64,000 nucleotides of DNA from Magnetococcales bacterium. GTDB lineage: Bacteria > Pseudomonadota > Magnetococcia > Magnetococcales > Magnetaquicoccaceae. Every line of letters begins with the position of its first letter. The first letter of the stretch is position 1. The notes under the pieces were generated by a model. That model did no database searches. It saw nothing but the letters and a program-made list of their open reading frames with translations, and was not told the DNA's origin. Shown piece after piece: positions 9,594-50,043 of the stretch. The position numbers and the translations under genes are program-made. The DNA is taken from NCBI GenBank assembly GCA_015231755.1, contig JADGAZ010000007.1:1-64000 (forward strand), given 5' to 3'.

Positions 9594-9621
9594 AGTAGAT
9601 CTTTCACAGCGGATCGTTTGA

Positions 9622-11597: not shown

Positions 11598-11659
11598 AGC
11601 CGATCCGGCCTGAACGCGCCGCCATCCGTCTTGGCGGGTGGATCTTCGTCGAAATCAGA

Positions 11660-12277: not shown

Positions 12278-12335
12278 GCGGTATCCGTTCCTTGTGACGT
12301 GATGGGAGGGTATGGGAGGACAGAGGGTGGCGGTT

Positions 12336-13238: not shown

Positions 13239-13264
13239 GGTTGATCCCACCTGCCCTGTCAGTG

Positions 13265-15490: not shown

Positions 15491-15690
15491 GCGGATGTCT
15501 CCCCAGGAGAGCGGGTGGTGTTCAGGCGGTTGAGCAGCAGTTCCGTGGCTTCCCGGAGTCTGGCGGCCTCGATGGAGCCTGTGGGATTGGGAAAGATTTC
15601 CAGCGCCTTGCGGCAGTGGGCTTCGAGAATGAACAACGGATCCTGGACGCGGAATGTGGCGCCGTTTGCGGACGGTTCAGGGAGGGACAT
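15487..15690 (-). CDS. Small helical protein coupled to the SMC-like ATPase
   Basis: A 67-residue, mostly helical, acidic-to-neutral protein without membrane segments (core DPLFILEAHCRKALEIF). Its stop overlaps the start of the ATPase gene (ATGA), and a GAGGTGA Shine-Dalgarno precedes its ATG, so it is a real coupled gene. I recognise no family. The tight coupling suggests a subunit or regulator of the ATPase. Confidence 0.65.
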   Translation of the reverse strand: MSLPEPSANGATFRVQDPLFILEAHCRKALEIFPNPTGSIEAARLREATELLLNRLNTTRSPGETSA

Positions 15691-15800
15691 CGGTTCACCT
15701 CGTGGCGGGCCGGGGGTCGTGAAGACGCAAAGAGGCTTGGATTGGAGATTCCGGGATCCATCTTATTCGTTTTGCGGTTCCGGGTAAACCCGGCATCTCA

Positions 15801-16940
15801 CTAGATGAGGCGGATCGGCTGAAAACCGTTGCCCGGTTCGCGGAAATTGGTCACCTGACCCCGGTAGACCCGGGCCGCGACCCCTAAAATCCGATCCCGG
15901 TAGACAAACAGGCGTATATCGGTTTTCAAGGGGGTGCCCTGGGGGTCCACCACGGTGAGGGAGGGGGGCACGTGACGTTGCACCAGGGTGGCGGCGGGGT
16001 CGAGGGAGTCGAAGCGGGCGCGGCTGATCTTGTCCCCCAGCAGCACTCCCCGTCCTCCGAATCCCTGGCAGGGTTTGAAGACCCAGCGTGCCCGCTCTTT
16101 CCAGACCTGGTTGCGGTCCCGTTGGTGGAGAAAGCGGGTTTCCGGCACGATGGAGGCGATGAAGGCCGCCTCTTCCGGGGAACATCCCAACCCGACCAGG
16201 GCCGCGGGATCCGACCAGACCACCAAGTGGCGTTTGTCCGCCAGCAGACCGTAGAGGCGGGGATTGGGGGTGAGGCAGACGGTACGGTTGAGCCAGGCGG
16301 CTTTCAGACCCGCGAGGGGTGGGCTTTCCAGGTAGAAATCGCAGTGGCGGTTGTAGATCAGATCCACCCGGTTTCCGGCGTGGAATACCCCGTCGGCGTT
16401 CATTTCCAGTTTGGACGGATCGAGAATGGCGCAGGGGCTACCGGCGGCGGTGAGCAGGGTGGCGCAGGCGACCATCTCCGGATACAGGAACTGGGCTTCC
16501 GGTTGGGCGTCCAGGATCACGATGCGCCGGGGTCTGGCCGCAGGATCGCCGCTGAAGCGGGCCATCTCTTCCCAAAAGGTTTCCAGCAGTCGGGTCTGAT
16601 GGGGATCTTCGAGGTCGAAGATCTCCGGGGGAAAGGTCGGACCCGGGGGGAAACAGGGATTCTGGGCGCAATGGGCCATGAGGGCGCCACCGGCATTGGT
16701 GTTGACCTCGATCAGGCGCGGTCCATCCGGGGTGAGATGAAAATCATAGCCCATCATCACCGCCTCGTGACCCGGATCGAACCGGGCGGTATCCGGGGTG
16801 TCCGGCAGGAGGCGGGGATGGTTCAGGGCCAGTCGGCGCAGGGCGCGGGTCAGCCGGATCATGTGGCGCAGATCCCGGCGGCGGATGGTGGCGTGGGGGC
16901 GGAGGGGATCCGGCTGCCAGGAAAGGGGGCTTGGGGTCAT
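15801..16940 (-). CDS. ATP-grasp-like protein of unknown substrate
   Basis: A 379-residue soluble protein. Features pointing to an ATP-grasp fold are RLIEVNTNAGGALM (about 93-106), the lysine-containing WVFKPCQGFGGRG glycine-rich loop (about 302-314), and the closing segment LKTDIRLFVYRDRILG. Conserved elements occur in an unusual order, as in circularly permuted ATP-grasp proteins. The start ATG overlaps the stop of the MFS gene (ATGA), so the two are coupled. The partner transporter suggests that it makes or ligates a small peptide-like compound that is exported or imported, but this is inference. Confidence 0.65.
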   Translation of the reverse strand: MTPSPLSWQPDPLRPHATIRRRDLRHMIRLTRALRRLALNHPRLLPDTPDTARFDPGHEAVMMGYDFHLTPDGPRLIEVNTNAGGALMAHCAQNPCFPPGPTFPPEIFDLEDPHQTRLLETFWEEMARFSGDPAARPRRIVILDAQPEAQFLYPEMVACATLLTAAGSPCAILDPSKLEMNADGVFHAGNRVDLIYNRHCDFYLESPPLAGLKAAWLNRTVCLTPNPRLYGLLADKRHLVVWSDPAALVGLGCSPEEAAFIASIVPETRFLHQRDRNQVWKERARWVFKPCQGFGGRGVLLGDKISRARFDSLDPAATLVQRHVPPSLTVVDPQGTPLKTDIRLFVYRDRILGVAARVYRGQVTNFREPGNGFQPIRLI

Positions 16941-34506: not shown

Positions 34507-35078
34507 GAATATTCCTTTATGCAATAAGCGGATTTGATCGATAATGTCGCCCGATTGATACTGAAAGTCGTTTTTGTTTGTGATGGAAATGATGCATTCC
34601 TGTACAGCCATTCAAAATATACGTTAGCAGCTTCTTGACGACAATGCAACCATCGTCTGAACATTTTTTGTAGTCAATATAACGACATAACAGACTGTAA
34701 ATATTTCTGCGTCCTGTTTGTATAACTTTTAAGATACATGAATCCGGAAAAGTCTGAAAACCGATTGATTCAAATCCCGGGTTTAATTTTGATCCGGATC
34801 AAGATTGGCCGGAGTCTGCTTTGAGTTCAGGTTTTTCTGTCGAGCCAATGAGTGATCGAATTTTCAGCAAAATTGGCAAAAAAAAGTGAAACGTTTTACT
34901 GGTTGCGGTGATTTGGCGGGCAAAGGGTGTGTGAGTTTATATTGATAGAAGTTGTGATGGGGAGGGAATTGAAAAATTATTGAACGGTACGATAATTGCA
35001 TTGTCTTGCTCCCGATGCGGTCCCCCGCAGCGGGCAGCGTTTGAAAATTGACAGCTTGAAAAAATGAGGATGACCAAA
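34507..35078. other. AT-rich divergent intergenic region
   Basis: Between the HD-GYP gene and the J-domain gene, over 500 bp carry no convincing gene. It is much richer in A and T than the surroundings. It contains the perfect TTGAT-N4-ATCAA site listed separately, and probably promoters for both divergent genes. Confidence 0.6.
34789..34802. promoter_or_regulatory. Perfect FNR/ANR-type palindrome
   Basis: TTGATCCGGATCAA is a perfect dyad matching the FNR consensus TTGAT-N4-ATCAA. It lies about 280 bp from both divergent starts, in the AT-rich region. Oxygen control of either the HD-GYP gene or the J-domain/TPR/mamK stretch would suit a microaerophilic organism. The distance from the starts is longer than usual. 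Confidence 0.55.
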
Positions 35079-36632
35079 ATGAACTTTCCCATTCCCTGGC
35101 GAACGGTTTCCACGGATCCCTCCCCCATCGCGCCCGCCAGACGGGTGGAAGAGGCGGTATTGCCTCCGGGGATGCGGCGGGTGAAGAGTACCTGCAAGGC
35201 GTGCGGCAAGTCGTTGGGCATCAAGTATCCGGAGGCGGTCACCTGCTGGAAGGTGCAGTGTCCCTCTTGTGGTCAGGTGATCGCCATCGAGCTGGTGGGG
35301 GGGCGGAAGTGTCTGGTCTTCAACGTCCAGGGGCGGCGGACCGTGGAGCGGATCGGTTTGACCGATCAGCGGCGGCGTTTTTTTCGCGCCCGCTGTTTCG
35401 TCTGCGACGAGACCCTGGTGGTGCCGGAGAGCGAAGCGGGTCGTCTGCGGGGATGTCATGGTTGCGGGTTGGAGTACACGGTGCGGGAAGAAGGCGAGGT
35501 CTATTACGAGACCGCGGTGCGCATCAACGACGAGATGACCACCTATCGGGAGAAGGTGCAGGAGTCTTCCGGTTATCTGACCAACAAGAACACCGCTTTT
35601 TTTCTCGGTGAGGAGCCGGGTCCGGGCCAGAAGGGGGGGCGGAGCGGGATCGAGCCGAGCGCGACCCTGTTGGCATTGCGGCGGGAAAGCGAGCAGTTGC
35701 GGGTGGATTATCGTCAGGCGTTGGCGGAAAAGGAGGCTTTGACCCGCAAGCTGGCCCAGGAGCAGGAACGGGTGAGCGCCTTGGAAAACGGAGCGGAAGC
35801 GGGGCTGGAGGTTTGTGTCACCGGGTTGCAGGCCCGGCTCGCCGAATTGGTCCGGGAGCGGGACCGGATCGGGGAGGAGCGGGATGTGTTGCAAAACCGG
35901 ATGCAGGCCCACAACGAGGCGTTGCGCGCTCTGGATGAGGAGTTGGCCAAACGGGCCCGGTTGGAGAGTCGGCTGACCCAGTTGGAAGCGTCATTGCGTC
36001 GCAGCGAGGAGAGCGTCGAGGTGTTGCGGCGGGAGCGGGACGGGGCGCGTCTGGTTTTGCAGGCGAGCGAGACCGCCCAGGCCCAGGCCAAAGAGGGGTT
36101 GCGTCAGGCGTTGGAGGAGCGCAAGGGGTTGGAGGCCCGTCTGCTGGCGGCCCGCGAAGCGGTGGCGCGCCTGGAAGAGCGGTTGGCCCGGGCCGATCAG
36201 GGGAGTGGATCGGTTCACGGGGCGCGGTTGCGGGAGTTGGAGGCGGAAAACGCCCGTCTGGCCGCCCGTGTGGCGGAAGGCGAGCGGTTGTTGCAGCGGG
36301 CCCGGGATCTGGAGCGGGAGGTGGAACGGTTGCGGGCTCCGGGAGCCGGGGAGATGACCGAGTTGGAGGAGGGGGAGAGCTGGTATTGCGAGGAGGGGCA
36401 GGAGGGATGCATCCGGGCCGACAGCGAAGTGGGCATGGCCCGTCGTGTTCTGGGGCTCAAGGGGCAACCCACGGTGGCGCGTATCAAGACCGCGTTCCGG
36501 CGACGGGTGAAACGTTATCATCCCGACAGGGTTACCTCTTTGGGGTTGGACCTGCGGGATCTGGCCCACAAGAAGATGCAGGAGATCAACCGGGCCTATG
36601 GCCTTTTGATGAAAGAGTACGGCAATGGATAG
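35079..36632 (+). CDS. Double zinc-ribbon, coiled-coil protein with C-terminal J domain
   Basis: A 517-residue cytoplasmic protein of unusual order. The N-terminus holds two treble-clef/zinc-ribbon pairs, CKAC...CPSC (about 38-67) and CFVC...CHGC (about 108-133). A Glu/Arg/Ala-rich coiled coil runs from about 200 to 420. The end is a J domain with the HPD motif in RVKRYHPDRV (about 482) and helix III/IV MQEINRAYGLLMKEYG. It should recruit DnaK to an unknown client. I chose the ATG with GAGG 8 nt upstream; two in-frame ATGs lie 9 and 15 nt earlier with weaker signals. It overlaps the next gene by 8 nt. Confidence 0.8.
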   Translation: MNFPIPWRTVSTDPSPIAPARRVEEAVLPPGMRRVKSTCKACGKSLGIKYPEAVTCWKVQCPSCGQVIAIELVGGRKCLVFNVQGRRTVERIGLTDQRRRFFRARCFVCDETLVVPESEAGRLRGCHGCGLEYTVREEGEVYYETAVRINDEMTTYREKVQESSGYLTNKNTAFFLGEEPGPGQKGGRSGIEPSATLLALRRESEQLRVDYRQALAEKEALTRKLAQEQERVSALENGAEAGLEVCVTGLQARLAELVRERDRIGEERDVLQNRMQAHNEALRALDEELAKRARLESRLTQLEASLRRSEESVEVLRRERDGARLVLQASETAQAQAKEGLRQALEERKGLEARLLAAREAVARLEERLARADQGSGSVHGARLRELEAENARLAARVAEGERLLQRARDLEREVERLRAPGAGEMTELEEGESWYCEEGQEGCIRADSEVGMARRVLGLKGQPTVARIKTAFRRRVKRYHPDRVTSLGLDLRDLAHKKMQEINRAYGLLMKEYGNG

Positions 36633-37986
36633 ACGCAAGCGTTGGATTTCCTGGTTGGGAGCGGGGTTGCTGTGCGGGGTGGCCTGGGCCGGGGAGCCGG
36701 TGGGAGGCGACGGGGCCGATCCTTTGGAGACCGGTCGGGCCTTGTCCCGGGCCGGAGCGCATGCCCGGGCGGTGGAGGCTTTCACCCAGGTGTTGCAGGG
36801 CAAAGACAGAGGCCCGGAACGGCGTCTCGGGGCGCTGGAGGGTCGGTGCGAGGCGTTGACCCGGCAATCGTTGCTCGAAAAGCGTGGGGAGTTGGCCTTG
36901 CGGGCCGTGGAGGACTGTTCCGAACGGCTCCGGTCGGAGTCGGGTGTGGCGCGGATCTGGCGTTTGCGGGGTTTGGCCCGACTGGCCGCCGGTCAGCCCG
37001 AACAGGCGTTGATCAATTTCAACCACGCCTTGCGGCTGGAACCGGATGACCGCTTGACCTTGCGGGATCGGGGGGTGGTGTTGCTGGGTCTGGGGCGGTT
37101 GGCCGAGGCCGAGGGGGATTTTCAGCGGGTGGCCCGTCTGGATCCGGATCAGGCGTGGAACCATTTCAACCGGGGACTGGTGCTGGCGCGTAACGGTCGG
37201 GTGGCGGAGGCGGCGGAGGCGTGGCGCGCCTTCGTGCGGGTCCGTGGGGAGGGATCCAGGGAGTGGCTGGCCCAGGTGGTGGCCCGTCCCGGGGGGGATC
37301 CCGACTCCAGGCGGGTGTTCGAGGCCATGGAGCGCACCGAGCCCGCGGGAGATTCTCCCCAGGGGCGGGGCGATCCGGCTTCGACAGCAGCGGCCACGGC
37401 ATCCCCGTCCGCCACTCCGGCTGCGACTCCGACAGCCACGGCCACCTCGTCTCCGTCCCCCCCCTCTTCGGGCGCCGCTCCGGCTGCGTCCGTGTCCGTC
37501 ACTCCGGCTGCGACCGCCACGGCCTCTTCGTCTTCGTCACCCGCTCCATCCCCGTCTTCTTCGGCAACCCCCTCCGAGACCCCGGCTGCGTCCGCGGCGG
37601 CCTCTCCGGCTTCGGCTGGGACTCCGGCCCCGTCGCCAGCCCCGCCCAGTGCCGTGGCGGCTTCCGAGGGCACGGGCAAGAACAAACTCCCTCCAGGTGG
37701 CGTGGCCCCATCGGCGACAGCTCCCACCAAAACAACCCTTCCGGCCTCGGCCAACGGTTATGAGGTGCGATTGGGTTCGTTTCAGGATCGGGGTAACCTG
37801 GAAGCCACGGTGCGCTCCTTGAGTCGTCTGGGTTTGACCGCCCGGGAAGAGGAGGTCACGGTGGGCGAGCGGCTGTTTTATCGTCTGGTGGCCGGACCGT
37901 TCGCCGACGAGGCCGAAGCCCGTTCGGTCATGGAACGGGCCGCCAAATTGCCCGGGGTACATCCGGAACCGGTGCGCGCCCGTTGA
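36625..37986 (+). CDS. Exported TPR protein with C-terminal SPOR domain
   Basis: A 453-residue periplasmic protein: signal peptide (about 1-22), TPR repeats (about 30-215, with ALINFNHALRLEPDDRLTLR), a long Ala/Pro/Ser/Thr-rich linker (about 245-370), and a SPOR domain (about 375-450: GYEVRLGSFQDRGNLEA to LFYRLVAGPFADEAEAR) that binds denuded septal peptidoglycan. It is coupled by an 8-nt overlap to the J-domain gene and precedes mamK by 360 bp. Septal targeting fits division or cell-envelope organisation; the mamK proximity hints at filament or chain partition, which is speculation. Confidence 0.85.
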   Translation: MDRRKRWISWLGAGLLCGVAWAGEPVGGDGADPLETGRALSRAGAHARAVEAFTQVLQGKDRGPERRLGALEGRCEALTRQSLLEKRGELALRAVEDCSERLRSESGVARIWRLRGLARLAAGQPEQALINFNHALRLEPDDRLTLRDRGVVLLGLGRLAEAEGDFQRVARLDPDQAWNHFNRGLVLARNGRVAEAAEAWRAFVRVRGEGSREWLAQVVARPGGDPDSRRVFEAMERTEPAGDSPQGRGDPASTAAATASPSATPAATPTATATSSPSPPSSGAAPAASVSVTPAATATASSSSSPAPSPSSSATPSETPAASAAASPASAGTPAPSPAPPSAVAASEGTGKNKLPPGGVAPSATAPTKTTLPASANGYEVRLGSFQDRGNLEATVRSLSRLGLTAREEEVTVGERLFYRLVAGPFADEAEARSVMERAAKLPGVHPEPVRAR

Positions 37987-38345
37987 TTTTTACATCAAAA
38001 GAGCCAGAAACCCGGCTTTTCATGGGTGGTCGGTCTGGCGCGCCGGGAAAAAATCCGTTAATCTGATCCGATGGCCGATTCCACACGGAAAAAACCTTGA
38101 AAACCTGCCCGATGGTCGGGTGTTTTGCACCAGGGGATGATCCGGCTTGCCTTGATGCCGAAGGCGGTCTTGCACCGTGACGGGATCCACGCCATAATTT
38201 CCAGCAGATTGAAGGCGTTCGGTCTCTCGTCAGGGTTGGCCCGACGCCGGGAAGGAAAACGGATTGGATATTCACGGGATCGGGAAGTGGTTCCCGGTCA
38301 TTGCGACTTTTGGCGGACGGTCACGTGCGCAGTCGGGAGGCAGTC
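37987..38345. other. Non-coding gap before mamK
   Basis: No open frame here looks coding. I see no strong terminator or regulator box; a GGGAGG Shine-Dalgarno appears just before the mamK ATG. It probably holds the mamK promoter. Confidence 0.5.
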
Positions 38346-39383
38346 ATGACGAGCGGGAATGGCGGTAGGGCATTGCTTTTGGGCATAGACATGGGCACGG
38401 CGCGGACCGCGGTGGTGAGCAACCGGCAATACAAGGCGCTGGTGAGTTCCGTGGTCGGTTATCCCAGAGACATCATCGGGGTGAAGATCCTCAATCGCAC
38501 CCAGGTGATCGGTGCCGAGGCGATCGAAATGCGCTCCTGTCTGGATCTGCATTTTCCGTTGCAAGACGGGGTGCTGAAAGAGGCCAGCGACAAGGATCTG
38601 GAAGCGGCCCAGGAACTGCTGAAACATATCATCGCACTGGCGGATCCCAAATCCGGAGACAAAATCTGCGGCATCATCGGGGTTCCGGCCCGGGCTTCGG
38701 TCTCCAACAAGGGGCAGTTGCTCAAGATCGCCGGGGAACTCATGGATATCGCCATGGTGGTCTCCGAGCCGTTCATGGTGGCCTACGGCCTGAATCGACT
38801 CAACAACGCCATCGTGATCGACGTGGGCGCCGGAACCATCGACCTGTGCGCCCTGCGGGGCACGGTGCCGGGTCCGGAAAATCAGTTGAGCATCCTCAAG
38901 GGGGGCAACTACATCGACCGGCTTTTGGAGGCCGCGATCCGCGACGCCTACGCCGGGGTGCAGATCGATCGTTATCTGGCCCAGGCCATCAAGGAGCAGT
39001 ATGCCTTTGTCGGCGAGCCGCAACAGCGTGTGGTGGTGCCCTTGCGGGTCAACGGCAAGCCGGCGGAGGTGGATGTCACCGACGCGGTGCGGGTGACTTG
39101 CGAAACCATCGTGGTGGATATCGTCGAAAACATCAAACGCATGCTGCCGTTGTTCGATCCGGAAAACCAGTCCGCGGCCTTGGCCAATCTGATCCTGGCG
39201 GGCGGGGGTTCCCGCATCCGGGGTCTGGGCGCCATGATCGAGTCCCAGTTGCGGGACTACGGCCAAGTAAAGGTGACCACGGTGGAAGACCCGGAGTTCG
39301 CCGGCGCGGACGGGGCGTTGCGTCTGGCCATGGAACTTCCGCCGGAATATTGGGATCAGATCGGGGAGAAGGTGGGGCAGTGA
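38346..39383 (+). CDS. mamK: MamK, bacterial actin of magnetosome chains
   Basis: A 345-residue actin-superfamily ATPase. Phosphate-1 is LLLGIDMGTARTAVVSN, the SVVGYPRD stretch follows as in MamK, and IGVPARAS, VVSEPFMVAYGL (with the catalytic-type Glu), IDVGAGTIDLCALRGTVPGP (phosphate-2) and LILAGGGSRIRGL (adenosine motif) are all there, together with the C-terminal ALRLAMELPPEYW. I judge these residues to match MamK rather than MreB, ParM or MamK-unrelated actins. MamK forms filaments that align and partition magnetosomes. It starts after a GGGAGG site. No mamE, mamB or mamM is present in this window, so this is either a dispersed mamK or a paralogue outside the main cluster. Confidence 0.93.
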   Translation: MTSGNGGRALLLGIDMGTARTAVVSNRQYKALVSSVVGYPRDIIGVKILNRTQVIGAEAIEMRSCLDLHFPLQDGVLKEASDKDLEAAQELLKHIIALADPKSGDKICGIIGVPARASVSNKGQLLKIAGELMDIAMVVSEPFMVAYGLNRLNNAIVIDVGAGTIDLCALRGTVPGPENQLSILKGGNYIDRLLEAAIRDAYAGVQIDRYLAQAIKEQYAFVGEPQQRVVVPLRVNGKPAEVDVTDAVRVTCETIVVDIVENIKRMLPLFDPENQSAALANLILAGGGSRIRGLGAMIESQLRDYGQVKVTTVEDPEFAGADGALRLAMELPPEYWDQIGEKVGQ

Positions 39384-41125: not shown

Positions 41126-42172
41126 TCATTCCCCTGCGGTTTTGGGTGCCGCCAGTGCGGCCTTGAGTTCCCGGCGGATCTGTTTCAATCCCGGCTCTTC
41201 GTTTTTGGGGAAGGGGATCGGGCGGCACAGGCGCAGACACTTCAACCCCACCCGGGCGGTGAACAGGGCATTGCTGGCCGCCTGACCCGCGCTGGCCAGG
41301 GCCACTCCCGCCAGAGTCTCCCCCAACGCCTCGCTGGCGGATTTGGCGAGTACCTCTCCGGCCCCGGCGGCCAGCATTCCTTCCGCCAGATGACGCATCA
41401 GCACCACGGTTCCCGCCGGTCCGGGACGCAGACCGTAGATGGTCGCGATCTCCCGCATCATGCGGGTATTGCGCCACAAGAACAGCAGCGCGTCCAGAAT
41501 CGCCAACGGACTCAGCACCGCCAGAAAGGCCGCCGAGGCGGCGTGACGGCCAATCACCCGCAAGGCCGCCTCATCCAGGGGACGCAGGGCGCGGGAGGAG
41601 AAGAGTTCCAGCATCTCCCGGTCTCCCAGATGGGCTTGATTCATGGCCCGGAAGGCTTCCAGGGAGTCCCGCAGTTCCGGGCGATGGCCGTGCTGGTCCG
41701 TCAACTGGGCAATCAGAGGCTGGGCATTGCCGAAAGAACCCCCGGACATCAGCCGCGCCGCCTCGCTGCGTATCGCCCCCTGGGCCCGCAGTTCCCGCAG
41801 GGCCAGGAACTCCCGTGTCACCGCCGTGACCAGCAAAGTCAGCAGCACCGCGATCAATCCCGAGAAAAAGACCCCCAACACCACATGCAGACGGAACTGA
41901 TTCACCAGAAACAGGGCGCTTTCCTCCAGAATGAGTCCGGTCAGAAGCAGGGTCGCGCTCCAGAAAAACCAGCGCCAGCGCCGTCCGGAGTGGGTGAAGG
42001 CCAGCTCTTCCGGGGTGGGATCGGGATCCAGGATCTCTTCTTCGGGTTCCGGGGGGTGGTTTTCGTGTTCGGTCAGGGGCAGACAGACCGGACCTGTGGC
42101 ACGGGGGGTCTCTTCCGGAGGCGGCTCCGGGGACAGCTCCACAGGTGGGGTCCAGCGGGGGCGCAGATTCAT
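41126..42172 (-). CDS. ycjF: YcjF/DUF697 membrane protein
   Basis: A 348-residue inner-membrane protein of the YcjF type (DUF697). The first 80 residues are Pro/Glu-rich cytoplasmic. Two hydrophobic helices (about 88-110, 117-140) come next, then a helical domain and the DUF697 region with AAFLAVLSPLAILDALLFLW and MMREIATIYGLRPG (about 210-250). Its start overlaps the YcjX stop (ATGA), as in the usual ycjX-ycjF pair. In E. coli ycjXF is linked to the phage-shock response; the biochemical role is not settled. Confidence 0.88.
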   Translation of the reverse strand: MNLRPRWTPPVELSPEPPPEETPRATGPVCLPLTEHENHPPEPEEEILDPDPTPEELAFTHSGRRWRWFFWSATLLLTGLILEESALFLVNQFRLHVVLGVFFSGLIAVLLTLLVTAVTREFLALRELRAQGAIRSEAARLMSGGSFGNAQPLIAQLTDQHGHRPELRDSLEAFRAMNQAHLGDREMLELFSSRALRPLDEAALRVIGRHAASAAFLAVLSPLAILDALLFLWRNTRMMREIATIYGLRPGPAGTVVLMRHLAEGMLAAGAGEVLAKSASEALGETLAGVALASAGQAASNALFTARVGLKCLRLCRPIPFPKNEEPGLKQIRRELKAALAAPKTAGE

Positions 42173-43611
42173 CGCAGTTTATCTCCCAGCAAAAATTCCA
42201 AAGCCTGATCCATGCGGATGTGGGGTGGCGTGGGGCTTTCGGCATCCGGCGGACGGCGTGGCTCGAACTCCATGAAATGAAAACGATGGGTATCCCACTC
42301 TTCGGGGTCGGGGAGGGTTTCCGGGATTTCGCCGGGAAACAGCAAAGTCTCTTTTTCCCGCCCCTTGGGGGTGCCCTGAACAAAAGAAAGGCGTCGTCCG
42401 TTGTGATCCCGCACCACGGTACGGGTGCAGCGCAACGAGGCCAGGGACTGGCTTTGGATCTCCACCCCCAGAAACGAGGCGTCGTTGGCCGAACGGGCCA
42501 CCAACCGACGCAACAGCCGTTCCATGTTGTGATGCTGATTGGCGGCCACATAGTCGGCCTTGGTGGCGGCGAACAGCAGACGGTCGATGCGGGGACTGAA
42601 CAGCCGGGTCAACAGGCTGGAAGGACCATGGCGGAAATTTTCCAGAATGGCTTCCAGGGAGGTGTGCATGTCGGCAAAGGCGGTCGGCCCCCGGTTGAGG
42701 GCTCCCAGCAGGTCCAGCAGCACGATCTGACGGTCGAAACGGGAGAAATGACGCTTGAGAAATCCTTCGGCTACCAGTTTGAGATAGGAGTCGAAACGTC
42801 TGGCCATGGCCTCGCGGATGGATCCGGCGGGAGAGCCTTCCGGACCCGGCGGGGGCAGAGGACAGAAGGTGAGCAGCGGCGCCCCCTTGAGGTCGCCGGG
42901 AATGGTGAAGCGTCCGGGTTGCAGAAAGCTCAATCCCACCTTGGGATGTTTGCAGGCCATGAGAAATTCGGTATAACTCTCCGCCGCGCCACGCATGATC
43001 TCTTCGCTGGCGGGTTCCGCCGGGTTCAAGGCGGCCAGATGATCGCGCCAGCGACCGGAAAGGGTACGCCGTGGCTCCTCTTCGCACAGTTTCAAGGTCA
43101 GCTCCGACCAGGAGTCGAAGGAGTGCTTGAGCATGGGCAGATCCAGCAGCCACTCGCCGGGATAGTCGATGACATCCAGGTAGAGGGTGGAGGAGGCGGA
43201 AAGCTTGCTGCTCAACAGTCCGGCGGGACGGAAGCGGATGGCCAGACGGATTTCGCTCAAGGCCTCGGTGGGCATGGGCCAGGCGGGCTTGTTGGCCAGC
43301 AGGGTGCGGATGTGACGCTCGTAGGGAAAAGCGGGAATGTCCAGATCCGGTTGCATCATGATCCGGGTGCCCAGCAGACGGTTTTCTTCCGCCGCCTTCA
43401 GCCCCGGCAGGTTGGAACCTTGCAGGGCGTGCAGCAGATGATGGATCAAGGTGGTGGTGAAAACCGTCTTGCCGCTTTGGTTCAGGCCGGTGACCGCCAG
43501 TCGCACCGTGCGATCCAGGGTGAGATGGAGCCAGTCATCCAGTTGGGTGCCCGCCTGATTGACATGACGGGTGAGTCGTTCCGGGTTCCAATCCTTGAAG
43601 GGATTTTTCAT
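42169..43611 (-). CDS. ycjX: YcjX family P-loop GTPase/ATPase
   Basis: A 480-residue YcjX (DUF463) protein. The P-loop is VTGLNQSGKTVFTTTLIHHL (about 39-58), the DxxG-like site is VIDYPGEWLLDLP (about 155-167), and the C-terminal part has the LFAATKADYVAANQHHNM segment (about 351-368) corresponding to NKxD. Members are compared to dynamin-like or Rag GTPases. The gene overlaps both neighbours by 4 nt, giving an operon with the MotB-like gene before it and ycjF after it. That a channel-type pair leads the operon is unusual. Confidence 0.92.
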   Translation of the reverse strand: MKNPFKDWNPERLTRHVNQAGTQLDDWLHLTLDRTVRLAVTGLNQSGKTVFTTTLIHHLLHALQGSNLPGLKAAEENRLLGTRIMMQPDLDIPAFPYERHIRTLLANKPAWPMPTEALSEIRLAIRFRPAGLLSSKLSASSTLYLDVIDYPGEWLLDLPMLKHSFDSWSELTLKLCEEEPRRTLSGRWRDHLAALNPAEPASEEIMRGAAESYTEFLMACKHPKVGLSFLQPGRFTIPGDLKGAPLLTFCPLPPPGPEGSPAGSIREAMARRFDSYLKLVAEGFLKRHFSRFDRQIVLLDLLGALNRGPTAFADMHTSLEAILENFRHGPSSLLTRLFSPRIDRLLFAATKADYVAANQHHNMERLLRRLVARSANDASFLGVEIQSQSLASLRCTRTVVRDHNGRRLSFVQGTPKGREKETLLFPGEIPETLPDPEEWDTHRFHFMEFEPRRPPDAESPTPPHIRMDQALEFLLGDKLR

Positions 43612-44405
43612 GGTTTGATCGTGGGCTGACGTGGAAGGGGTGGGGAAGGATGATGGGCGTCACCGGTCGGGGAACTCCCCGGAGCCGGAGCGGATCCGAT
43701 CCATTTGAGGGTGGCGTTTTCCTGTTTCAGGCGTTCCAGTTCTCGGTTGAGCCGGGTCACCTCGTCGGACAGGGGGCGCTGTTGCGGCTCCGAGGTCGCT
43801 GCCGGCGGAGCCGCGACAGGTAGAGTCGCGCCACCGTTGCGACTGGTGAGGGCGTTCAGGTCGTGGCCCATCTGAACGATCCGATTCTCCCGCTCCTGGA
43901 GTCTGGCTTCCAACTCCACCCGCAGACGGCGCGCCTCCCCGGTCTCCCGGGTCGCCTCCTCGATGCGGGTGTTCAGGCGGGCGATTTCGGTTTGCAGACG
44001 GTCGATGCGGGCGGTCTGGCCTTCCTGTTCGGCTTCCGCCAGCACAGGGGGGGATGCGGCGTTTTTATCCCCTTTCCACTGTTTCAGCATGGCGGCGTTG
44101 CGGGCGGTCAGATCCGCCACCTCGCCTCGCAACAAGGCCACTCCGGTCCATTCCGCCGCACGGGAAGAGGGAGGCGTGGTCTCCCAGTCCTCCAGACGGC
44201 CCGCTCCCTGGCTATCCCCTTGAATCAGACCCTGAATCCGTCCCTCCCGCACCTGGAGTTTGGCGGTCAATTCGGCATTGAGGGACTTCAGACGGCGTGT
44301 CTCCGCCTCGACGGGTTCCTGGGTAGCGAGCTGGGGCAGGGCGCTCACCAGAATCACCACCAGAAAGACCATCCCCATCAAAAGATCAAACCATAATATC
44401 CGCAT
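43608..44405 (-). CDS. MotB/ZorB-like single-helix coiled-coil protein
   Basis: A 265-residue protein beginning MRILWFDLLMGMVFLVVILV: one N-terminal helix with an Asp near its start, as in MotB, ExbD and ZorB where that Asp carries protons. The rest is a coiled coil in two blocks (about 35-80 and 120-240, e.g. ETRRLKSLNAELTAKLQVRE), ending in a short Pro/Ser tail. No OmpA-type peptidoglycan-binding domain is present. The ATG before RILWFD is the likely start; longer versions lack a leader. It overlaps the ycjX start as ATGA. Confidence 0.65.
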   Translation of the reverse strand: MRILWFDLLMGMVFLVVILVSALPQLATQEPVEAETRRLKSLNAELTAKLQVREGRIQGLIQGDSQGAGRLEDWETTPPSSRAAEWTGVALLRGEVADLTARNAAMLKQWKGDKNAASPPVLAEAEQEGQTARIDRLQTEIARLNTRIEEATRETGEARRLRVELEARLQERENRIVQMGHDLNALTSRNGGATLPVAAPPAATSEPQQRPLSDEVTRLNRELERLKQENATLKWIGSAPAPGSSPTGDAHHPSPPLPRQPTIKP

Positions 44406-44634
44406 ACCCAACCCGATGTTACCACTTCTTTGGAAGGTTATGATCGGTGCCCAAGGGCTTCGTTCCTGGACCCCACCAGGGGGATGATCCCCCTGGACCC
44501 GCAATTGTTTTGGAATGATGGATCCTGCCAAAGTGGAATCCGAGGGATTCATCTCCCAGAATCTGTTCTTTATATAATCATTACTGTTTTTCAGTTACTA
44601 AAACTATTGAAAAAAAAGAGGGGGTCTGGGGGAT
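44406..44634. repeat. Palindromic repeat cluster, GGGTCTGGG family
   Basis: Two elements lie here. CCAGGGGGATGATCCCCCTGG at about 44476-44496 is a perfect hairpin. From 44606 the run ATTGAAAAAAAAGAGGGGGT, CTGGGGGATTCATCCCCCAG repeats the left half of the 9.46-kb copy; it continues into the ZorA-like gene, supplying that gene's last codons and stop. The gap splits an otherwise compact operon and may attenuate it. Confidence 0.75.
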
Positions 44635-46236
44635 TCATCCCCCAGGGTTTGTCCTTTTCCCAGCCCCCCGTGAGCGCATGAATTGGTCGAACAATCGGGG
44701 CAGTTCTTTTTTTTCGGGTTCGGGTTCCGGGGTGATCAGGAGTGAGTCGGCCCGGTCCCGGTCCAGGCCCGAGAGCATCTGGGAGACCACCTGTTGATTG
44801 TTTTGCGCCAGGCGGTTGAGCAGGGCTTCCGCCGAGCGGGAGAAGGTGCCTTCCATGCGGGTGTTGAAGTGTTCCACCGCGTGGACCAGGCTTTCCACCG
44901 CCTCCCGACCGGCGCGGATCGATCCTTCGCTGGCGCGGCGGGTTTCGTTGGCCAGGGCGCTCAGGCCGTTGAGGCTTTCGGATTGTTTTTCCAGGGCGCG
45001 GGCCGCCAGTTCCATGCGATCGATGATGCGCATCCAGGATTCTTGTTCCGGGCGGCTCAGGTGTTGCGAGCCGTCCACGGTTCGGGCGCCACCCGGTTGC
45101 AGCTCCCGGGCCAGATGATGGGCCAGTTCCCGGGCCAGATGGCGTCCCTCGTCCCGCAGGGATTCGATCATCGGGCGCCATACGGCGGGATCCGGGGCGG
45201 AAGCCGGAGCCGTCGCCACCCAGTGGGTCACTTCGCCTTCCCGGGGGAGGGCTTCCGGCAGGGGGGCGTGACTGCTCTCCAGGATGGGTTGCAGGCTTTG
45301 GGTCAGGGATTCCAGCAGGTGTCCGAGCCGTTTGCCCTCGTTCAGCAAGGTGGCGTTCAGGGTGCGCAGCTCCGCCGTGTTTTCTTTGGGATCCGGCAGG
45401 CGGGTTTGGATCAGGGTGAGCAGCTTGTGGTTTTCCGCCCGCAACGCCTGGATCAACGGCTCCAGGGTGGCGGTGGAGAGGGTGACAGCCAGGGGGGCGG
45501 GTTCGGCTTCCGGCGCGACAGGGTGACGGAGGCGATCCATGGCGGTCATCTGTTCGTGGGCCAGGCGTTCCGGGGTGATGAACACCAGCCGGATGGCGAG
45601 TTGGTCGCACCACAGCTCCAGCTCTTTTTCGAGGCGCCGTTGCCACACCCGGGTACGCCATCCCAGCAACCAGGCGGACAAAAATCCGGCGATCGAGGCG
45701 AGAAATTTGAGGGATGCCATGGCCAACACCCCCCGCAGGGCCATGCGCACCGTCTCCGGATCCCCGGAGAGCAGGCCCCGGGAGGCGTAATGCAGCGCTC
45801 CCACCAGTCCCACGAAGGTGAAAAGCAAGCCGGATCCCGCCAGATGGGTGGGCAGGGTTTGCAGGCGTTGCGCCCGGGGGTGATGGGCGGTGAGGGGGGC
45901 GAGGCGGAAAAACCGATCGGGTCGTTGACCATACAAAATCATGGTTCCGGGGGATTCGGTGGGAATCCAGGTGGCGGTGAAGTGACGCCAGGCTTTGGCC
46001 AGATCCGGCAGCACGTTCAATCCGGCGTCCAGATGGGGCAGATGGGGGGGGAATTCCGCAGGGGAATCCGGGGTTTCGTCGAGCAGTTGCCGGGCCAGTC
46101 GGATCTGGGCCAACAGGGGATCCAGGTAGGTGTCCCGGGCGAACCACCATGCCGCCCCGGCCCACAGGGGGATCAGCAGGGCCGGAATCCACGGGGCGAA
46201 CGGGTGATTGACGACGGTGACGATCCACTCGAACAT
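44635..46236 (-). CDS. ZorA/MotA-like membrane channel protein
   Basis: A 533-residue protein. An N-terminal helix (about 14-32) is followed by a cytoplasmic stretch and then the paired helices LAGSGLLFTFVGLVGALHYA (about 131-150) and LAMASLKFLASIAGFLSAWL (about 170-190), which correspond to the conserved ion-channel helices of MotA/TolQ/ExbB/ZorA. The C-terminal 300 residues are helical/coiled with many Glu, Arg and Leu, resembling the long intracellular tail of ZorA. Together with the MotB-like gene it suggests a proton-driven stator. ZorC, ZorD and ZorE are absent. The last residues (NPGG) are encoded by the palindromic repeat. Confidence 0.65.
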   Translation of the reverse strand: MFEWIVTVVNHPFAPWIPALLIPLWAGAAWWFARDTYLDPLLAQIRLARQLLDETPDSPAEFPPHLPHLDAGLNVLPDLAKAWRHFTATWIPTESPGTMILYGQRPDRFFRLAPLTAHHPRAQRLQTLPTHLAGSGLLFTFVGLVGALHYASRGLLSGDPETVRMALRGVLAMASLKFLASIAGFLSAWLLGWRTRVWQRRLEKELELWCDQLAIRLVFITPERLAHEQMTAMDRLRHPVAPEAEPAPLAVTLSTATLEPLIQALRAENHKLLTLIQTRLPDPKENTAELRTLNATLLNEGKRLGHLLESLTQSLQPILESSHAPLPEALPREGEVTHWVATAPASAPDPAVWRPMIESLRDEGRHLARELAHHLARELQPGGARTVDGSQHLSRPEQESWMRIIDRMELAARALEKQSESLNGLSALANETRRASEGSIRAGREAVESLVHAVEHFNTRMEGTFSRSAEALLNRLAQNNQQVVSQMLSGLDRDRADSLLITPEPEPEKKELPRLFDQFMRSRGAGKRTNPGG

Positions 46237-46273
46237 GGGGGTTGAGGCTCCTGGCGCGACAGTGTTTTTTTAT

Positions 46274-47152
46274 TTAAGAGGGATCGGATTCCAGGGCGTG
46301 CCAGCGCCGGAACGCCTCACCCACCACGGCCTTGACGTGGGGATAGTAGCCGCCATAGCGTTCCCGCAGGGAACCGGTGGCCAGTCCTTCGTCGGTGGCC
46401 GAGGCCAGAGCCTGGGCATTGGGCAGCACCTGCTCGAACACCGGAATCTGCAACCGTTCGGCCATGGCGTGGACCCAGGGAATGTTGCGTTGGTACTGCT
46501 GACCCCGTTTGTCCGCCCGGTTGAGGAGCATGCCCAGGCATACGGGTCGTTTGCCATCGCCTTGTTCCCGGGCGTAGCGGATCATTTCCACGGTATCGGG
46601 CATGGCGTCGATGGAGAAGCGGGAGACTTCCACCGGGCTGATCACCGAATCGCTCATGATCAGGCCGTTGACTGCCAGCAGGTTGCGTGCGTCGATGTTG
46701 CCGGGCAGATCCAGCAAGGCGATGTCGAAGGATTGGGCCAGCAGGGGTTTGAGCCGGTCCCGGAGGATGGTGAGGCGATGGAGGGGATTGGCCTCGAAGG
46801 CGAAGGCGCTGTTTTTGTCCGAGATCATCACCCCCACCTCGGAAACCGGGGTGGCTCTTCCCTTGACCGTGCCTTTGGGACGGGTGAACACACAGGATTC
46901 CAGGGCCACCGTGCGTCCCAGATCCAGATCCCGGGCCAGGGGGCCGAGGGTGTGGCCCGAGGCTCGGGCCTGGGCCAGTCCCGCGCTTCCCAGCAGGGAG
47001 GCTCCGCAGGAACCCTGGGCATCCAGATCCAGCACCACCACCTTCATGGGGCGGCCCCGCACCGCCAAAGACGCCAAAAAATCGGCCATGAACACGGCGA
47101 GCGTCGATTTCCCGACACCGCCTTTGTTGTTGTAGATGGCGATGGTGTACAT
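46274..47152 (-). CDS. ParA/MinD-family ATPase (first copy)
   Basis: A 292-residue ATPase. The deviant Walker A is IYNNKGGVGKSTLAVFMADF at the N-terminus, with the signature Lys, then VVLDLDAQGSCGASL as Walker A' and IALLDLPGNIDARNLLAVN as Walker B. No ParB or parS-like gene is near. It lies 37 bp upstream of the ZorA-like gene, reading the same way, and probably belongs to that operon. The family positions plasmids, protein clusters and organelles; the cargo here is unknown. Confidence 0.9.
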   Translation of the reverse strand: MYTIAIYNNKGGVGKSTLAVFMADFLASLAVRGRPMKVVVLDLDAQGSCGASLLGSAGLAQARASGHTLGPLARDLDLGRTVALESCVFTRPKGTVKGRATPVSEVGVMISDKNSAFAFEANPLHRLTILRDRLKPLLAQSFDIALLDLPGNIDARNLLAVNGLIMSDSVISPVEVSRFSIDAMPDTVEMIRYAREQGDGKRPVCLGMLLNRADKRGQQYQRNIPWVHAMAERLQIPVFEQVLPNAQALASATDEGLATGSLRERYGGYYPHVKAVVGEAFRRWHALESDPS

Positions 47153-47468: not shown

Positions 47469-48197
47469 TCACCAGGGCATGAAGCGGTTGATGAAGCTCA
47501 TGGGTCGCGTGGCGCCGCTCATGTCGTAACTCATGGAGTTCATGGTTCCGGCCATGTTGTGGACCGCCTGTCCCATGACCGCGACATTTTGACTGATGGG
47601 GGTCAGAACGGTCAATTTCTGGTTGATGTCGGACATGGTTTTGTCCATGCTCTTGATATTGCCGGTGAGGGAGGCGACATTCTGGTTCATGCCCGCGACA
47701 TTGCCGTTCATGGTATTGATGGATGAGGTCATGTTTTCCATGTTTTCGGCCATGTTTTGCATGTCCACGGACATGGTTTCCATGTTGTCGCTGATGTATT
47801 CCAGATGGGTGGACATCACCTCCATGTTATTGGAGAGTTGGCTGATGTTGTTGGACAGGCTTCCCATGTTCACCCCCATCTTGGGATCGATGGAGGAGGC
47901 CATGGTGCGTATATCCTGGGTGAGGCTGTAGATCAGGAAAAAACCGTACATGGCCAGAATGATGAACGCGAACAGCGACGGATAGACGATCAATTCCCAG
48001 CGTCGTGCGCTTTTGTCGAAGCTTTTGGCAAAATCCGACAGGATCATGGCCGAGCATTCGCCGCACTCCCGGTATCGACCGGCGGGGACGATGGGCATGT
48101 TGGGCGGCATAATCCTGGCCTGTGGGGCTGGTTTTCCGTCCATCGGCTCGGGATGGCTGGAACCCCTGGAGGGCTGCGGATTGGGGTTGTCCGACAT
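47469..48197 (-). CDS. Membrane-anchored heptad-repeat protein
   Basis: A 242-residue protein. The cytoplasmic-type N-terminus (1-65) is Pro-rich with a CGEC motif near residue 47 and positive charges; one helix follows (about 70-92). From about residue 110 the sequence is a run of seven-residue units such as NNMEVMS, DNMETMS, ENMENMT, GNVAGMN and GNIKSMD, with Met/Ile/Leu at fixed positions. This predicts a regular coiled coil of about 11 heptads. Similar Met/Asn-rich proteins occur in sulfur oxidisers, from memory. It follows ParA copy 2 by 14 bp. A tether between ParA and a membrane cargo is a reasonable guess. Confidence 0.7.
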   Translation of the reverse strand: MSDNPNPQPSRGSSHPEPMDGKPAPQARIMPPNMPIVPAGRYRECGECSAMILSDFAKSFDKSARRWELIVYPSLFAFIILAMYGFFLIYSLTQDIRTMASSIDPKMGVNMGSLSNNISQLSNNMEVMSTHLEYISDNMETMSVDMQNMAENMENMTSSINTMNGNVAGMNQNVASLTGNIKSMDKTMSDINQKLTVLTPISQNVAVMGQAVHNMAGTMNSMSYDMSGATRPMSFINRFMPW

Positions 48198-48211
48198 GGA
48201 TCAGGCTCCTT

Positions 48212-48883
48212 CTAGGATGAACGCGACTCCGATGGACGATCGGAGGAGAGTAGCTCCGGATAGAGCGTGCCGGCGAGATCCAGGAACTCCTGGGATGCCT
48301 TGCCGCCAGGCGCCAACTCGAATACCGCTCTGCCTTCGCTGAACGAGCGACGGTAGGCGGTGCGCTGACAGATCCGGGTCTTCAAAATGGTCACACCCGG
48401 CAGTGTGGCCAACGCCGCTTCGGTTTCATCCGACTCTCGCAACATCGGATGGGTATCGGCACGATTCACGAACAGACAAATTTCCGGTCTGCGGGATCGG
48501 GCCGAGGCCGTTTCTTTGACAATTTCCAGAAAACGGGCCGTGGACCAGACATCCGCCTGACTTGGAGGCACCGGAACCAGAATCCGATCCGCCTGACCGA
48601 TGGCCTGACGCATGGCCCACAGGTTGGAAGCGCCCACATCCACCAGGGCTTCTCCTTTGTGATTGGCCATGATCCGGGCCGGATCGCTTTCGGAGCGGAA
48701 CACCTTCACATCCGGTGTCACGCCTTCTTCCCGTCGCACTTCGATGGCATCGCTCAAGGTGGCCTGGGGATCCAGATCGAAGGTCACCACGTCGATGCCA
48801 CGACGGGCCAGCCACACGGCCAGATTGAAGGTGATCGTGCTTTTGCCGCAGCCGCCTTTGAGGTTACCTACGACGGTGATCAT
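48212..48883 (-). CDS. ParA-family ATPase (second copy)
   Basis: A 223-residue orphan ParA/McdA-type ATPase. It begins MITVVGNLKGGCGKSTITFN (deviant Walker A), with VVTFDLDPQATLSDAIEVR (A') and EALVDVGASNLWAM (Walker B region). The start has an AAGGAA Shine-Dalgarno; the open frame extends 85 codons further upstream without family similarity. It lacks the N-terminal DNA-binding domain of plasmid ParA. It sits between the heptad protein and the sulfur-globule proteins. Small ParA proteins in sulfur-oxidising and carboxysome bacteria place large cargos along the nucleoid. Confidence 0.92.
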   Translation of the reverse strand: MITVVGNLKGGCGKSTITFNLAVWLARRGIDVVTFDLDPQATLSDAIEVRREEGVTPDVKVFRSESDPARIMANHKGEALVDVGASNLWAMRQAIGQADRILVPVPPSQADVWSTARFLEIVKETASARSRRPEICLFVNRADTHPMLRESDETEAALATLPGVTILKTRICQRTAYRRSFSEGRAVFELAPGGKASQEFLDLAGTLYPELLSSDRPSESRSS

Positions 48884-49002
48884 GCGTTCCTTTTTTGTTT
48901 CGGTCCAAGCGAGGTCGAGGGCGAATTCCGAGGCTATCTTTTTACGCAATAACTGTCCGGAATTCAAGTGTACACTCGACGGATGCACGTGCCGCGACGG
49001 AC

Positions 49003-49068: not shown

Positions 49069-49563
49069 TTACTTGCCAGCCGGAGCAGCCTCGGGAGCGG
49101 GCGCGCCTTGCGGACCGGCCATGGGAGGAGCACCCCACGCGCCGGGAGGAGGCGGCGGATAGCCGTAGCCATAACCAGGACCGCCATAACCATAGCCGGG
49201 GCCGCCCCAGTTGTTGCCGTTGTTCCAGCCATTGTTCCAGCCGTTGTTGTTGTTCCAGCCGTTGGAATTGTTCCAGTTGTTGTTGCCGTTGCCATTGCCG
49301 CTGCCATTGCCGGCCACGTCACCGCCCATGTTGAAACCGAAGTTGCCATTGGCGCGGCCATTGCCACTGCCATTGCCAGCTCCGTTGTTGGCCCAGTTGT
49401 TGCCCCAGTTGTTGCTGTTGTTGTTGCCCCAACCATTGTTGCCCCAACCGTTATTATTGCCCCAACCCGGGCCACCCCACCAAGCGGAAGCATCCGGCGC
49501 GGTCAGCAGGGCGCCGCCACCGATCAGGACCGCAACCGCCAGCACCTTCATACCATTTTTCAT
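49069..49563 (-). CDS. Sulfur-globule-type WGN-rich envelope protein 1
   Basis: A 164-residue exported protein: signal peptide (about 1-26, ending TAPDASA), then Trp/Gly/Asn repeats (AWWGGPGWGNNNGWGNNGWG), the short unrepeated block NGNFGFNMGGDVAGNGSG, more NNW repeats, and a Gly/Tyr/Pro end. This is the composition and layout of the Sgp proteins that coat periplasmic sulfur globules in purple sulfur bacteria. The Shine-Dalgarno GGAG precedes the ATG. The second globule gene lies 48 bp upstream. Confidence 0.85.
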   Translation of the reverse strand: MKNGMKVLAVAVLIGGGALLTAPDASAWWGGPGWGNNNGWGNNGWGNNNSNNWGNNWANNGAGNGSGNGRANGNFGFNMGGDVAGNGSGNGNGNNNWNNSNGWNNNNGWNNGWNNGNNWGGPGYGYGGPGYGYGYPPPPPGAWGAPPMAGPQGAPAPEAAPAGK

Positions 49564-49611
49564 TGTATTCTCCAGTTCGAAATTATTGAGGGGCGCTTCG
49601 TGGTCAATCCC

Positions 49612-50043
49612 TTACCACCAGCCGCCGGGGCCCCAGCTGCCGGGTCCCCAGCCGCCAGGTCCACCGTTCCAGGGACCGCCCCCAAAGGGCCCCCAGCCGT
49701 TGTTGTTGTTCCATCCGTTATGATTGTTCCAGCCGTTGTTGTTCCAGCCGTTGTTGTTCCAGTCGTTGTTGCCGTTCCAAAGATTGTTGGCCCAGCCGTC
49801 CACGTCGCCATCAACGCTGAAGGTGAAATTGCCTTTGGCACGGCCATTGCCATTGCCGTTGCCCCAACCGTTGTTGCCCCAATTGTTTCCCCAATTGTTA
49901 TTGCCCCAACCATTGTTGTCCCAATTGTTGTTGCCCCAACCATTGTCCCAGGGACCCCACCAGGCGGAGGCGGTTTCGGGAAGGGCGTGACCCAGGGCGG
50001 TGAGAACACCGGCCAGGGCAAGAATGCGAGCGGTTCTTTTCAT
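49612..50043 (-). CDS. Sulfur-globule-type WGN-rich envelope protein 2
   Basis: A 143-residue protein with a signal peptide ending ALPETASA, followed by AWWGPWDNGWGNNNWDN-type repeats, then the same type of block (KGNFTFSVDGDVDG) as in the neighbouring protein and a long run of NNGWNN units with a GPG/W end. The paired genes, each with this internal block, look like a duplication. Both should be exported and form the globule shell or matrix. Confidence 0.85.
   Translation of the reverse strand: MKRTARILALAGVLTALGHALPETASAWWGPWDNGWGNNNWDNNGWGNNNWGNNWGNNGWGNGNGNGRAKGNFTFSVDGDVDGWANNLWNGNNDWNNNGWNNNGWNNHNGWNNNNGWGPFGGGPWNGGPGGWGPGSWGPGGWW

What the first reader, a model, noticed from the sequence alone, without database searches (positions are those of the whole stretch)
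41126..47152. A possible stator-plus-GTPase membrane machine: ParA, ZorA/MotA-like, MotB-like, YcjX and YcjF
Five minus-strand genes in order are a ParA ATPase, a large ZorA/MotA-like channel protein, a single-helix protein with a MotB-type Asp and a coiled coil but no peptidoglycan-binding domain, YcjX and YcjF. The last three overlap by ATGA. From the families: MotA/MotB-like pairs use ion flow to drive a tail; YcjX is a P-loop protein, and ycjXF relates to membrane stress. The combination with ParA is not one I know. Inference: an energised, spatially positioned membrane complex, perhaps with a defence or organelle role.
Basis: partly seen in the sequence, partly recalled or inferred. Interest (0 to 1): 0.85.

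Follow-up and report, generated by a model that had tools for sequence, protein, structure and literature searches.

The report
Magnetosome-linked ZorAB motor module with ParA
In an uncultured magnetotactic coccus, five linked genes encode a ZorAB-type ion-channel motor pair, a positioning ATPase and a membrane GTPase pair; relatives carry the same genes inside or beside their magnetosome gene clusters, which points to a possible motor or anchor for the cell's magnetic organelles.

Summary
The five genes are real, in the stated order, and conserved. The 'MotA-like' protein is a ZorA homologue: its family profile matches cryo-EM ZorA chains at 4.6e-17. The 'MotB-like' protein keeps the membrane Asp but has lost the ZorB wall-binding domain, which relatives retain. 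Similar ParA-ZorA-ZorB-YcjX-YcjF clusters occur throughout 'Ca. Magnetaquicoccaceae' (Magnetococcales), with some components missing in some genomes.

A curated-level mamK lies 1.7 kb beyond ycjF. In genus g2 the module is divergent from core mamD/F/H/E genes or from a second mamK. In Magnetococcus marinus MC-1 and four relatives, zorA-zorB-p192 homologues directly follow mamT in the mamAB operon. The window's genome has three mamK genes, each near its own ZorA/ZorB pair. Of 75 ZorA-like loci, 31 lie within 20 kb of a mamK, against 1.4 expected.

Best reading: a detached offshoot of a magnetosome gene cluster, probably an ion-driven membrane motor or anchor coupled to MamK, with ParA giving position. 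A defence role is disfavoured: near-universal in the order, no Zorya effectors, no wall-binding domain. The function is inferred. No held paper links Zorya-type proteins, or YcjX, to magnetosomes.

The parts
46274..47152 (-). ParA1: ParA/MipZ-type ATPase. Orthologues (E<=1e-40) only in 17 of 48 Magnetococcales genomes and in 0 of 350 other Pseudomonadota.
44635..46236 (-). ZorA' : ZorA-type channel subunit, 533 aa, with channel helices around T140 (45817-45819) and S181 (45694-45696) and a short coiled-coil tail
43608..44552 (-). ZorB' : MotB/ZorB-type single-helix subunit with Asp56 (44385-44387) and a coiled coil; the periplasmic ZorB domain is lost, while g2 and G035 relatives keep it
42169..43611 (-). 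YcjX P-loop protein (DUF463), the only copy in the genome
41126..42172 (-). YcjF (TIGR01620/DUF697) membrane protein
38301..39383 (+). MamK2: MamK-family actin, 506 bits against a cut-off of 400; in one supported clade with module-linked and core-cluster mamK genes of the family
47469..48197 (-). ccTM: single membrane helix plus long coiled coil; conserved beside ParA1 in genus g1 (accessory, uncertain)
48212..48960 (-). Second ParA (NCBIfam ParA_partition 138 bits, cut-off 180), conserved beside ccTM in genus g1 (accessory, uncertain)
36625..37986 (+). TPR/SPOR protein, conserved beside mamK2 in genus g1 (accessory, uncertain)
35064..36632 (+). Coiled-coil DnaJ-domain protein, conserved beside mamK2 in genus g1 (accessory, uncertain)

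Best explanation
The module is a detached, specialised descendant of the zorA-zorB-p192 tail of a magnetosome gene cluster (supported by gene order and trees). It gained a dedicated ParA upstream of zorA and ycjX-ycjF between zorB and p192. ZorA' and ZorB' most likely form a ZorAB/MotAB-like pentamer:dimer channel in the inner membrane (inferred from homology to solved ZorAB), in which ion flow past Asp56 drives movement of ZorA' and its coiled-coil tail. ParA1 most likely places the complex in the cell, YcjX/YcjF act as its membrane NTPase partner, and the load is the MamK2 filament and through it the magnetosomes (inferred from linkage). It would thus position or tether magnetosomes in cocci that lack mamJ and mamY. 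The loss of the wall-binding domain in the window's genus means its ZorB' cannot be fixed to peptidoglycan in the usual way; it may use its coiled coil or another partner.
For: ZorA family profile hits PDB ZorA chains 8qyh, 8qyy, 8qyk and 8vvn at 4.6e-17 to 1.8e-16. Module order recurs across the genus and family, with exceptions. In G023, G024, G025 and G026 the module is divergent from mamD-like/mamF/mamH/mamE. In UR-1-like G020-G022 only mamK2 plus parA-zorA-zorB-ycjF is found, with no other mam-gene match within the 7-20 kb examined. In MC-1 (G037), G038, G039, G007 and G014, zorA-zorB follows mamT on the same strand; mamT, S, B, Q, O and M pass curated cut-offs in MC-1. G035 and G026 carry zorB-ycjX-ycjF-p192. 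Three mamK genes of the window's genome each lie near a ZorA/ZorB pair. 31 of 75 ZorA-like loci lie within 20 kb of mamK versus 1.4 expected. MamK and ZorA trees agree in placing the window's genes near those of G007/G014. A membrane Asp is present in the genus relatives whose ZorB' N-terminus was read.
Against: No experiment. Linkage to mamK is not uniform: in G027 the module sits on a 94-kb contig without mamK, in G028 it is about 23 kb away, and in G031 no MamK was found although the assembly is incomplete. Components drop out: no zorB in the G027/G032 module, no zorA in G023, no ycjX in G020-G022. The mamT-linked copies of G007/G014 lack the membrane acid and the TM3 serine, so not every member can be ion-driven. 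The single structure prediction was too poor to use. Related genomes inflate the linkage count.
Confidence: 0.55

Rival explanations
1. A Zorya-like anti-phage system in which ParA and YcjXF replace the usual effectors, sitting in the magnetosome island as part of a defence-rich region.
For: ZorA/ZorB ancestry. A separate ZorA-ZorB-ZorC set followed by a 1121-aa gene in the ZorD position occurs in Magnetococcales (L062), and a ZorABC set lies beside the core cluster of the window's own genome.
Against: No ZorC/D/E/F/G among the module and adjacent proteins scanned. The wall-binding domain, essential in Zorya I and II (PMC11890865), is lost, and the tail, also essential there, is short. The ZorA family is found in 45 of 48 Magnetococcales against 14 of 350 other Pseudomonadota, unlike a sporadic defence gene. 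ParA1 had no match in the phage collection and ZorA' only one weak match among plasmids. In MC-1 the genes sit at the end of the mamAB operon.
Confidence: 0.12
2. A general membrane-energy or envelope-stress module, or a cell-pole, division or flagellar positioning module, that only shares a genomic island with mamK.
For: YcjXF belongs to the phage-shock/membrane-stress regulon in enterobacteria (knowledge of the family). ParA-type ATPases position many cargoes. YcjXF pairs occur away from this module in other families. Some genomes have the module far from mamK.
Against: Repeated, differently arranged linkage of ZorA/ZorB genes to mamK or mam operons. In UR-1-like genomes mamK2 is retained together with the module and with no other mam-gene match nearby.
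Confidence: 0.22
3. A relic of an older magnetosome cluster, replaced by a second transferred cluster, which lingers without a present role in magnetosomes.
For: The window's genome has a different, probably transferred core cluster with another MamK clade; transfer of the island in this family is proposed in PMC6783814.
Against: All genes are intact and under purifying selection (dN/dS 0.05 for YcjX, 0.07 for MamK2, 0.17 for ParA1, about 0.34 for ZorA'/ZorB'), and the membrane Asp is conserved.
Confidence: 0.08

Closest known systems
Zorya ZorA-ZorB motor (type I; PDB 8QYD/8QYH/8VVN)
   Same: ZorA channel fold over most of its N-terminal region, membrane Asp in ZorB; g2 and G035 relatives keep the ZorB periplasmic domain
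   Different: No ZorC/D/E/F/G partner, short ZorA tail, no ZorB wall-binding domain in the window's genus; joined to ParA, YcjXF and mamK
zorA-zorB-p192 genes after mamT in the mamAB operon of Magnetococcus marinus MC-1 and relatives (not described under these names in the papers read)
   Same: Same ZorA family (A1), ZorB homologue, magnetosome context
   Different: No ParA or YcjXF; ZorA of 1700-2200 aa in MC-1-type genomes; lies in the core operon rather than apart
MamK magnetoskeleton (MamK, MamJ, MamY) of Magnetospirillum
   Same: MamK actin next to the module
   Different: mamJ and mamY are reported absent from Magnetococcales (PMC6783814); a motor pair and ParA are not part of the known magnetoskeleton
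YcjX-YcjF of the phage-shock regulon
   Same: Full-length homologues, adjacent and overlapping
   Different: No Psp proteins among the flanking genes scanned; inserted behind zorB
ZorABC beside mamD in 'Ca. Magnetaquicoccus inordinatus' UR-1 (noted in PMC6783814 as EH-signature, MotB and apolipoprotein-domain genes)
   Same: ZorA/ZorB pair beside the magnetosome cluster; the window's genome has one too
   Different: Different ZorA clade, has ZorC, no ParA or YcjXF

Membership tests
Zorya defence system | ZorA channel subunit | tested here: met
   NF033914 4.1e-23 but below its cut-off; PADLOC ZorA1 4.4e-24; PDB ZorA 4.6e-17 by family profile
Zorya defence system | ZorB with membrane Asp | tested here: met
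   Asp56 in the single helix, conserved in the genus
Zorya defence system | ZorB periplasmic peptidoglycan-binding domain | tested here: not met
   No match with a ZorB C-domain profile, filters off; present in g2, G035, f6 and MC-1 homologues
Zorya defence system | Long ZorA cytoplasmic tail | tested here: inconclusive
   533 aa in the window, 293-398 aa frames in g2, against 696-729 aa in solved full-length type I ZorA; a coiled coil remains
Zorya defence system | Effector ZorC+ZorD, ZorE or ZorF+ZorG | tested here: not met
   PADLOC scan of the module, ccTM and second ParA finds none
Zorya defence system | Anti-phage activity | not testable with these tools
   needs an experiment
Flagellar MotAB stator | MotA/ExbB Pfam domain and OmpA-type MotB domain | tested here: not met
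   No MotA/TolQ/ExbB or OmpA Pfam match; best matches are ZorA
Magnetosome gene cluster component | Located with core mam genes | tested here: inconclusive
   In the window only mamK was found, the core cluster being on another contig; met in G023-G026 and, for zorAB, in MC-1-type genomes
ParA partition system | ParA ATPase | tested here: met
   AAA_31 and CbiA above cut-off, Walker A invariant
ParA partition system | Adjacent ParB/adaptor and parS | tested here: inconclusive
   No ParB Pfam match among neighbouring proteins scanned; parS sites not searched
YcjX/YcjF families | Full-length match above curated cut-off | tested here: met
   PF04317 556.8 bits; TIGR01620 220.4 bits against 160
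Phage-shock (psp) module | PspF/PspA/PspB/PspC neighbours | tested here: not met
   No such Pfam match among flanking proteins scanned
MamK family | NCBIfam MamK above cut-off | tested here: met
   506.5 bits against 400

The most novel reading that the evidence does not exclude
Magnetotactic cocci move or hold their magnetosomes with ion-driven rotary motors of the ZorAB kind acting on MamK actin filaments, one motor type per MamK paralogue, and in Magnetaquicoccaceae such a motor is placed by its own ParA. This would be a membrane rotary motor working on an intracellular bacterial organelle and its cytoskeleton.
Probability: 0.3. Interest if true: 0.95.

Novelty: new variant of a known kind. 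Interest (0 to 1): 0.78.

Why it matters
How magnetotactic cocci arrange and anchor magnetosomes without MamJ and MamY is open: reports discuss MamK copy number, maq1 and mamC but give no mechanism (PMC6783814, PMC12791574). A set of ZorAB-type motors tied to mamK gives named, testable candidates. It also suggests that ZorAB machinery, known from phage defence, has been used for organelle biology, so automatic 'Zorya' calls in magnetotactic genomes may be wrong.

Tried and rejected
Structure prediction of ZorA' with a two-sequence alignment gave mean pLDDT 47 and was not used. Considered and rejected: flagellar stator (no MotA match), mobile defence island (phage and plasmid searches essentially empty), chance neighbourhood (order conserved across a family). 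No held paper contains magnetosome plus Zorya or magnetosome plus YcjX. The passages read of papers on Magnetococcales clusters do not name ZorAB homologues; UR-1's second mamK contig of 7,100 bp is reported without comment on its ParA/ZorA/ZorB/YcjF neighbours in the text read. The FCR-1 paper (PMC11950176) is not held, and Schubbe 2009 was not read.
Full report
Observation. Their identities are ParA (AAA_31 2.5e-17), a ZorA homologue (NCBIfam ZorA_1 4.1e-23 over residues 43-233; PADLOC ZorA1 4.4e-24), a one-helix protein with Asp56 and a coiled coil, YcjX (556.8 bits) and YcjF (220.4 bits, cut-off 160). The gap between ParA and ZorA' is 37 bp and between ZorA' and ZorB' 82 bp; the last two junctions are ATGA overlaps. 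Against the closest relative G030, dN/dS is 0.17 (ParA1), 0.34 (ZorA'), 0.34 (ZorB'), 0.05 (YcjX), 0.24 (YcjF) and 0.07 (MamK).

What the channel pair is. A profile of 23 family members (A1) matches solved ZorA chains over positions 21-235 (E 4.6e-17 and similar) and nothing else credible in the PDB. The printed alignment pairs the TM2 threonine (T140) and the TM3 serine (S181) with the T and S of ZorA. A membrane Asp is present in the window protein and in the genus relatives whose N-terminus could be read; more distant homologues have Asp or Glu, except G007 and G014. The ZorB periplasmic domain is found in g2 (1.9e-38, 2.3e-26), f6 (2.6e-23) and MC-1 (5.8e-27) homologues and by similarity in G035, but not in the window or in six further complete genus copies even with filters off. 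It was therefore lost within the genus.

Who carries it. The window lies in a 3.84-Mb genome in an order represented by 48 held genomes. G020 is evidently 'Ca. Magnetaquicoccus inordinatus' UR-1: two of its contigs, 44,671 and 7,100 bp, match the lengths of the mam and second-mamK contigs in PMC6783814. The family f1 is therefore 'Ca. Magnetaquicoccaceae', order Magnetococcales; the record title of G026 also says Magnetococcales. G037 is taken as Magnetococcus marinus MC-1 from its single 4,719,581-bp contig (size recalled) and its mamAB gene order. ParA1 orthologues at E<=1e-40 occur in 17 of 48 Magnetococcales and 0 of 350 other Pseudomonadota. The ZorA family profile finds a match at E<=1e-15 in 45 of 48 and in 14 of 350; matches outside are probably ordinary Zorya. 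Besides the window, the order ParA-ZorA-ZorB-YcjX-YcjF is complete on one contig in five genus genomes (G028, G029, G030, G031, G036) and consistent with contig breaks in G033. In G034 it is split over two contigs, in G035 ParA1 was not found, and in G027 and G032 zorB is missing.

Magnetosome context. A mamK above the curated cut-off (506 vs 400 bits) lies 1.7 kb past ycjF. In G023, G024, G025 and G026 the module is divergent from a mamD-like gene, mamF, mamH and mamE; mamH is above cut-off in G026 (603.5 vs 300), mamE is the best equivalog match though below cut-off, and the mamD-like match is weak. In the UR-1-like genomes G020, G021 and G022 it is divergent from a second mamK, with no other mam-gene match on the 7-20 kb examined. 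In MC-1 the mamAB operon runs mamQ-mamB-mamS-mamT-zorA-zorB-p192 on one strand; mamT, S, B, Q, O and M pass their curated cut-offs and mamA is slightly below. G038, G039, G007 and G014 have zorA-zorB after mamT as well. G026 and G035 have zorB-ycjX-ycjF-p192, which fits insertion of ycjXF between zorB and p192 and makes the window's module an offshoot of this magnetosome operon tail.

Three mamK genes, three motor pairs. In the window's own genome, mamK1 lies in the core cluster (C22) near a divergent ZorABC (ZorA1 4.7e-46, ZorB1 3.2e-65, ZorC1 6.9e-52). mamK2 is that of the window. mamK3 (C12) is followed by ZorA3 (ZorA1 8.6e-58), a CHAD-domain protein and ZorB3 (ZorB1 1.9e-65). The mamK3-ZorA3 pairing recurs in G027, G028, G030, G032 and G036. 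Across the order, 31 of 75 ZorA-like loci lie within 20 kb of a mamK versus 1.4 expected from genome sizes; the nominal probability (1e-30) is not literal because genomes are related and assemblies fragmented.

Trees. The window's MamK belongs to a 20-row family clade (SH-aLRT 99) that includes mamK2 beside the module in g2, mamK3, and the core-cluster mamK of G023, G025, G026 and G035. It is next to the core-cluster mamK of G007/G014 (91). The core-cluster mamK of the window's genome is in a separate clade. The genus ZorA' likewise groups with the mamT-linked ZorA of G007/G014 (88), but the g2 module ZorA' falls with a second g2 ZorA instead (91), so the ZorA history is not fully resolved. 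A simple reading is that an older cluster carrying mamK2 and this module was replaced by a transferred one in part of the family (transfer proposed in PMC6783814), and mamK2 plus the module were retained.

Mechanism. Shown: gene identity, conservation, channel residues, linkage. Inferred from solved ZorAB (5:2, ion-driven, tail and wall binding needed for defence; PMC11890865): a pentamer-dimer channel powered by ion flow. Inferred from linkage: its load is MamK2 and the magnetosomes. Inferred from family knowledge: ParA1 provides position and YcjXF acts at the membrane. UR-1 and the cultured FCR-1, both of this family, have clustered rather than chained magnetosomes (PMC6783814, PMC12791574), so a role in clustering or polar placement is an obvious test. 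Against a universal motor: the mamT-linked copies of G007/G014 lack the acid and the serine and may be passive anchors.

Verdict. Observation confirmed; interpretation partly supported and extended. Not a Zorya member, because a defining domain and the effectors were tested and not met, though it may work like ZorAB.

Noticed in passing
L064 (own genome C22) 9417-15554: ZorA-ZorB-ZorC set divergent from mamD-like/mamF/mamH/mamE; no ZorD found next to it. UR-1's counterpart was described in PMC6783814 only as apolipoprotein-domain, MotB and EH-signature genes.
   Followed up: partly
L094 (own genome C12) 9287-16595: Gene run mamK3 - ZorA3 (1294 aa) - CHAD-domain protein - ZorB3, also seen in several genus relatives.
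   Followed up: partly
L044 11697-12275; L053 4358-4960; L246 1713-2543; L057 about 12000-12593: p192, an uncharacterised protein family without Pfam match, follows zorB in MC-1-type magnetosome operons and follows ycjF in G026 and G035.
   Followed up: partly
window 47469-48960: Coiled-coil membrane protein and a second ParA, conserved next to ParA1 in genus g1 but not seen in g2.
   Followed up: partly
window 49069-50043: Two adjacent small proteins rich in Asn-Gly-Trp repeats (WGNNNGWGNN type).
   Followed up: no
L038 5568-9533, L043 9865-13431, L039 3919-8691: Proteins of 1200-1600 aa with similar-looking N-termini lie upstream of long ZorA-family genes in families f6, f14 and genus g2.
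   Followed up: no
G027 C81 (L036), G032 C83 (L035), G023 C153 (L083): Module variants lacking zorB (G027, G032) or zorA (G023).
   Followed up: partly
L044 10735-11700, L051 4511-5500: mamT-linked ZorB homologues without an acidic residue in the membrane helix, paired with ZorA lacking the TM3 serine; possibly unpowered.
   Followed up: partly
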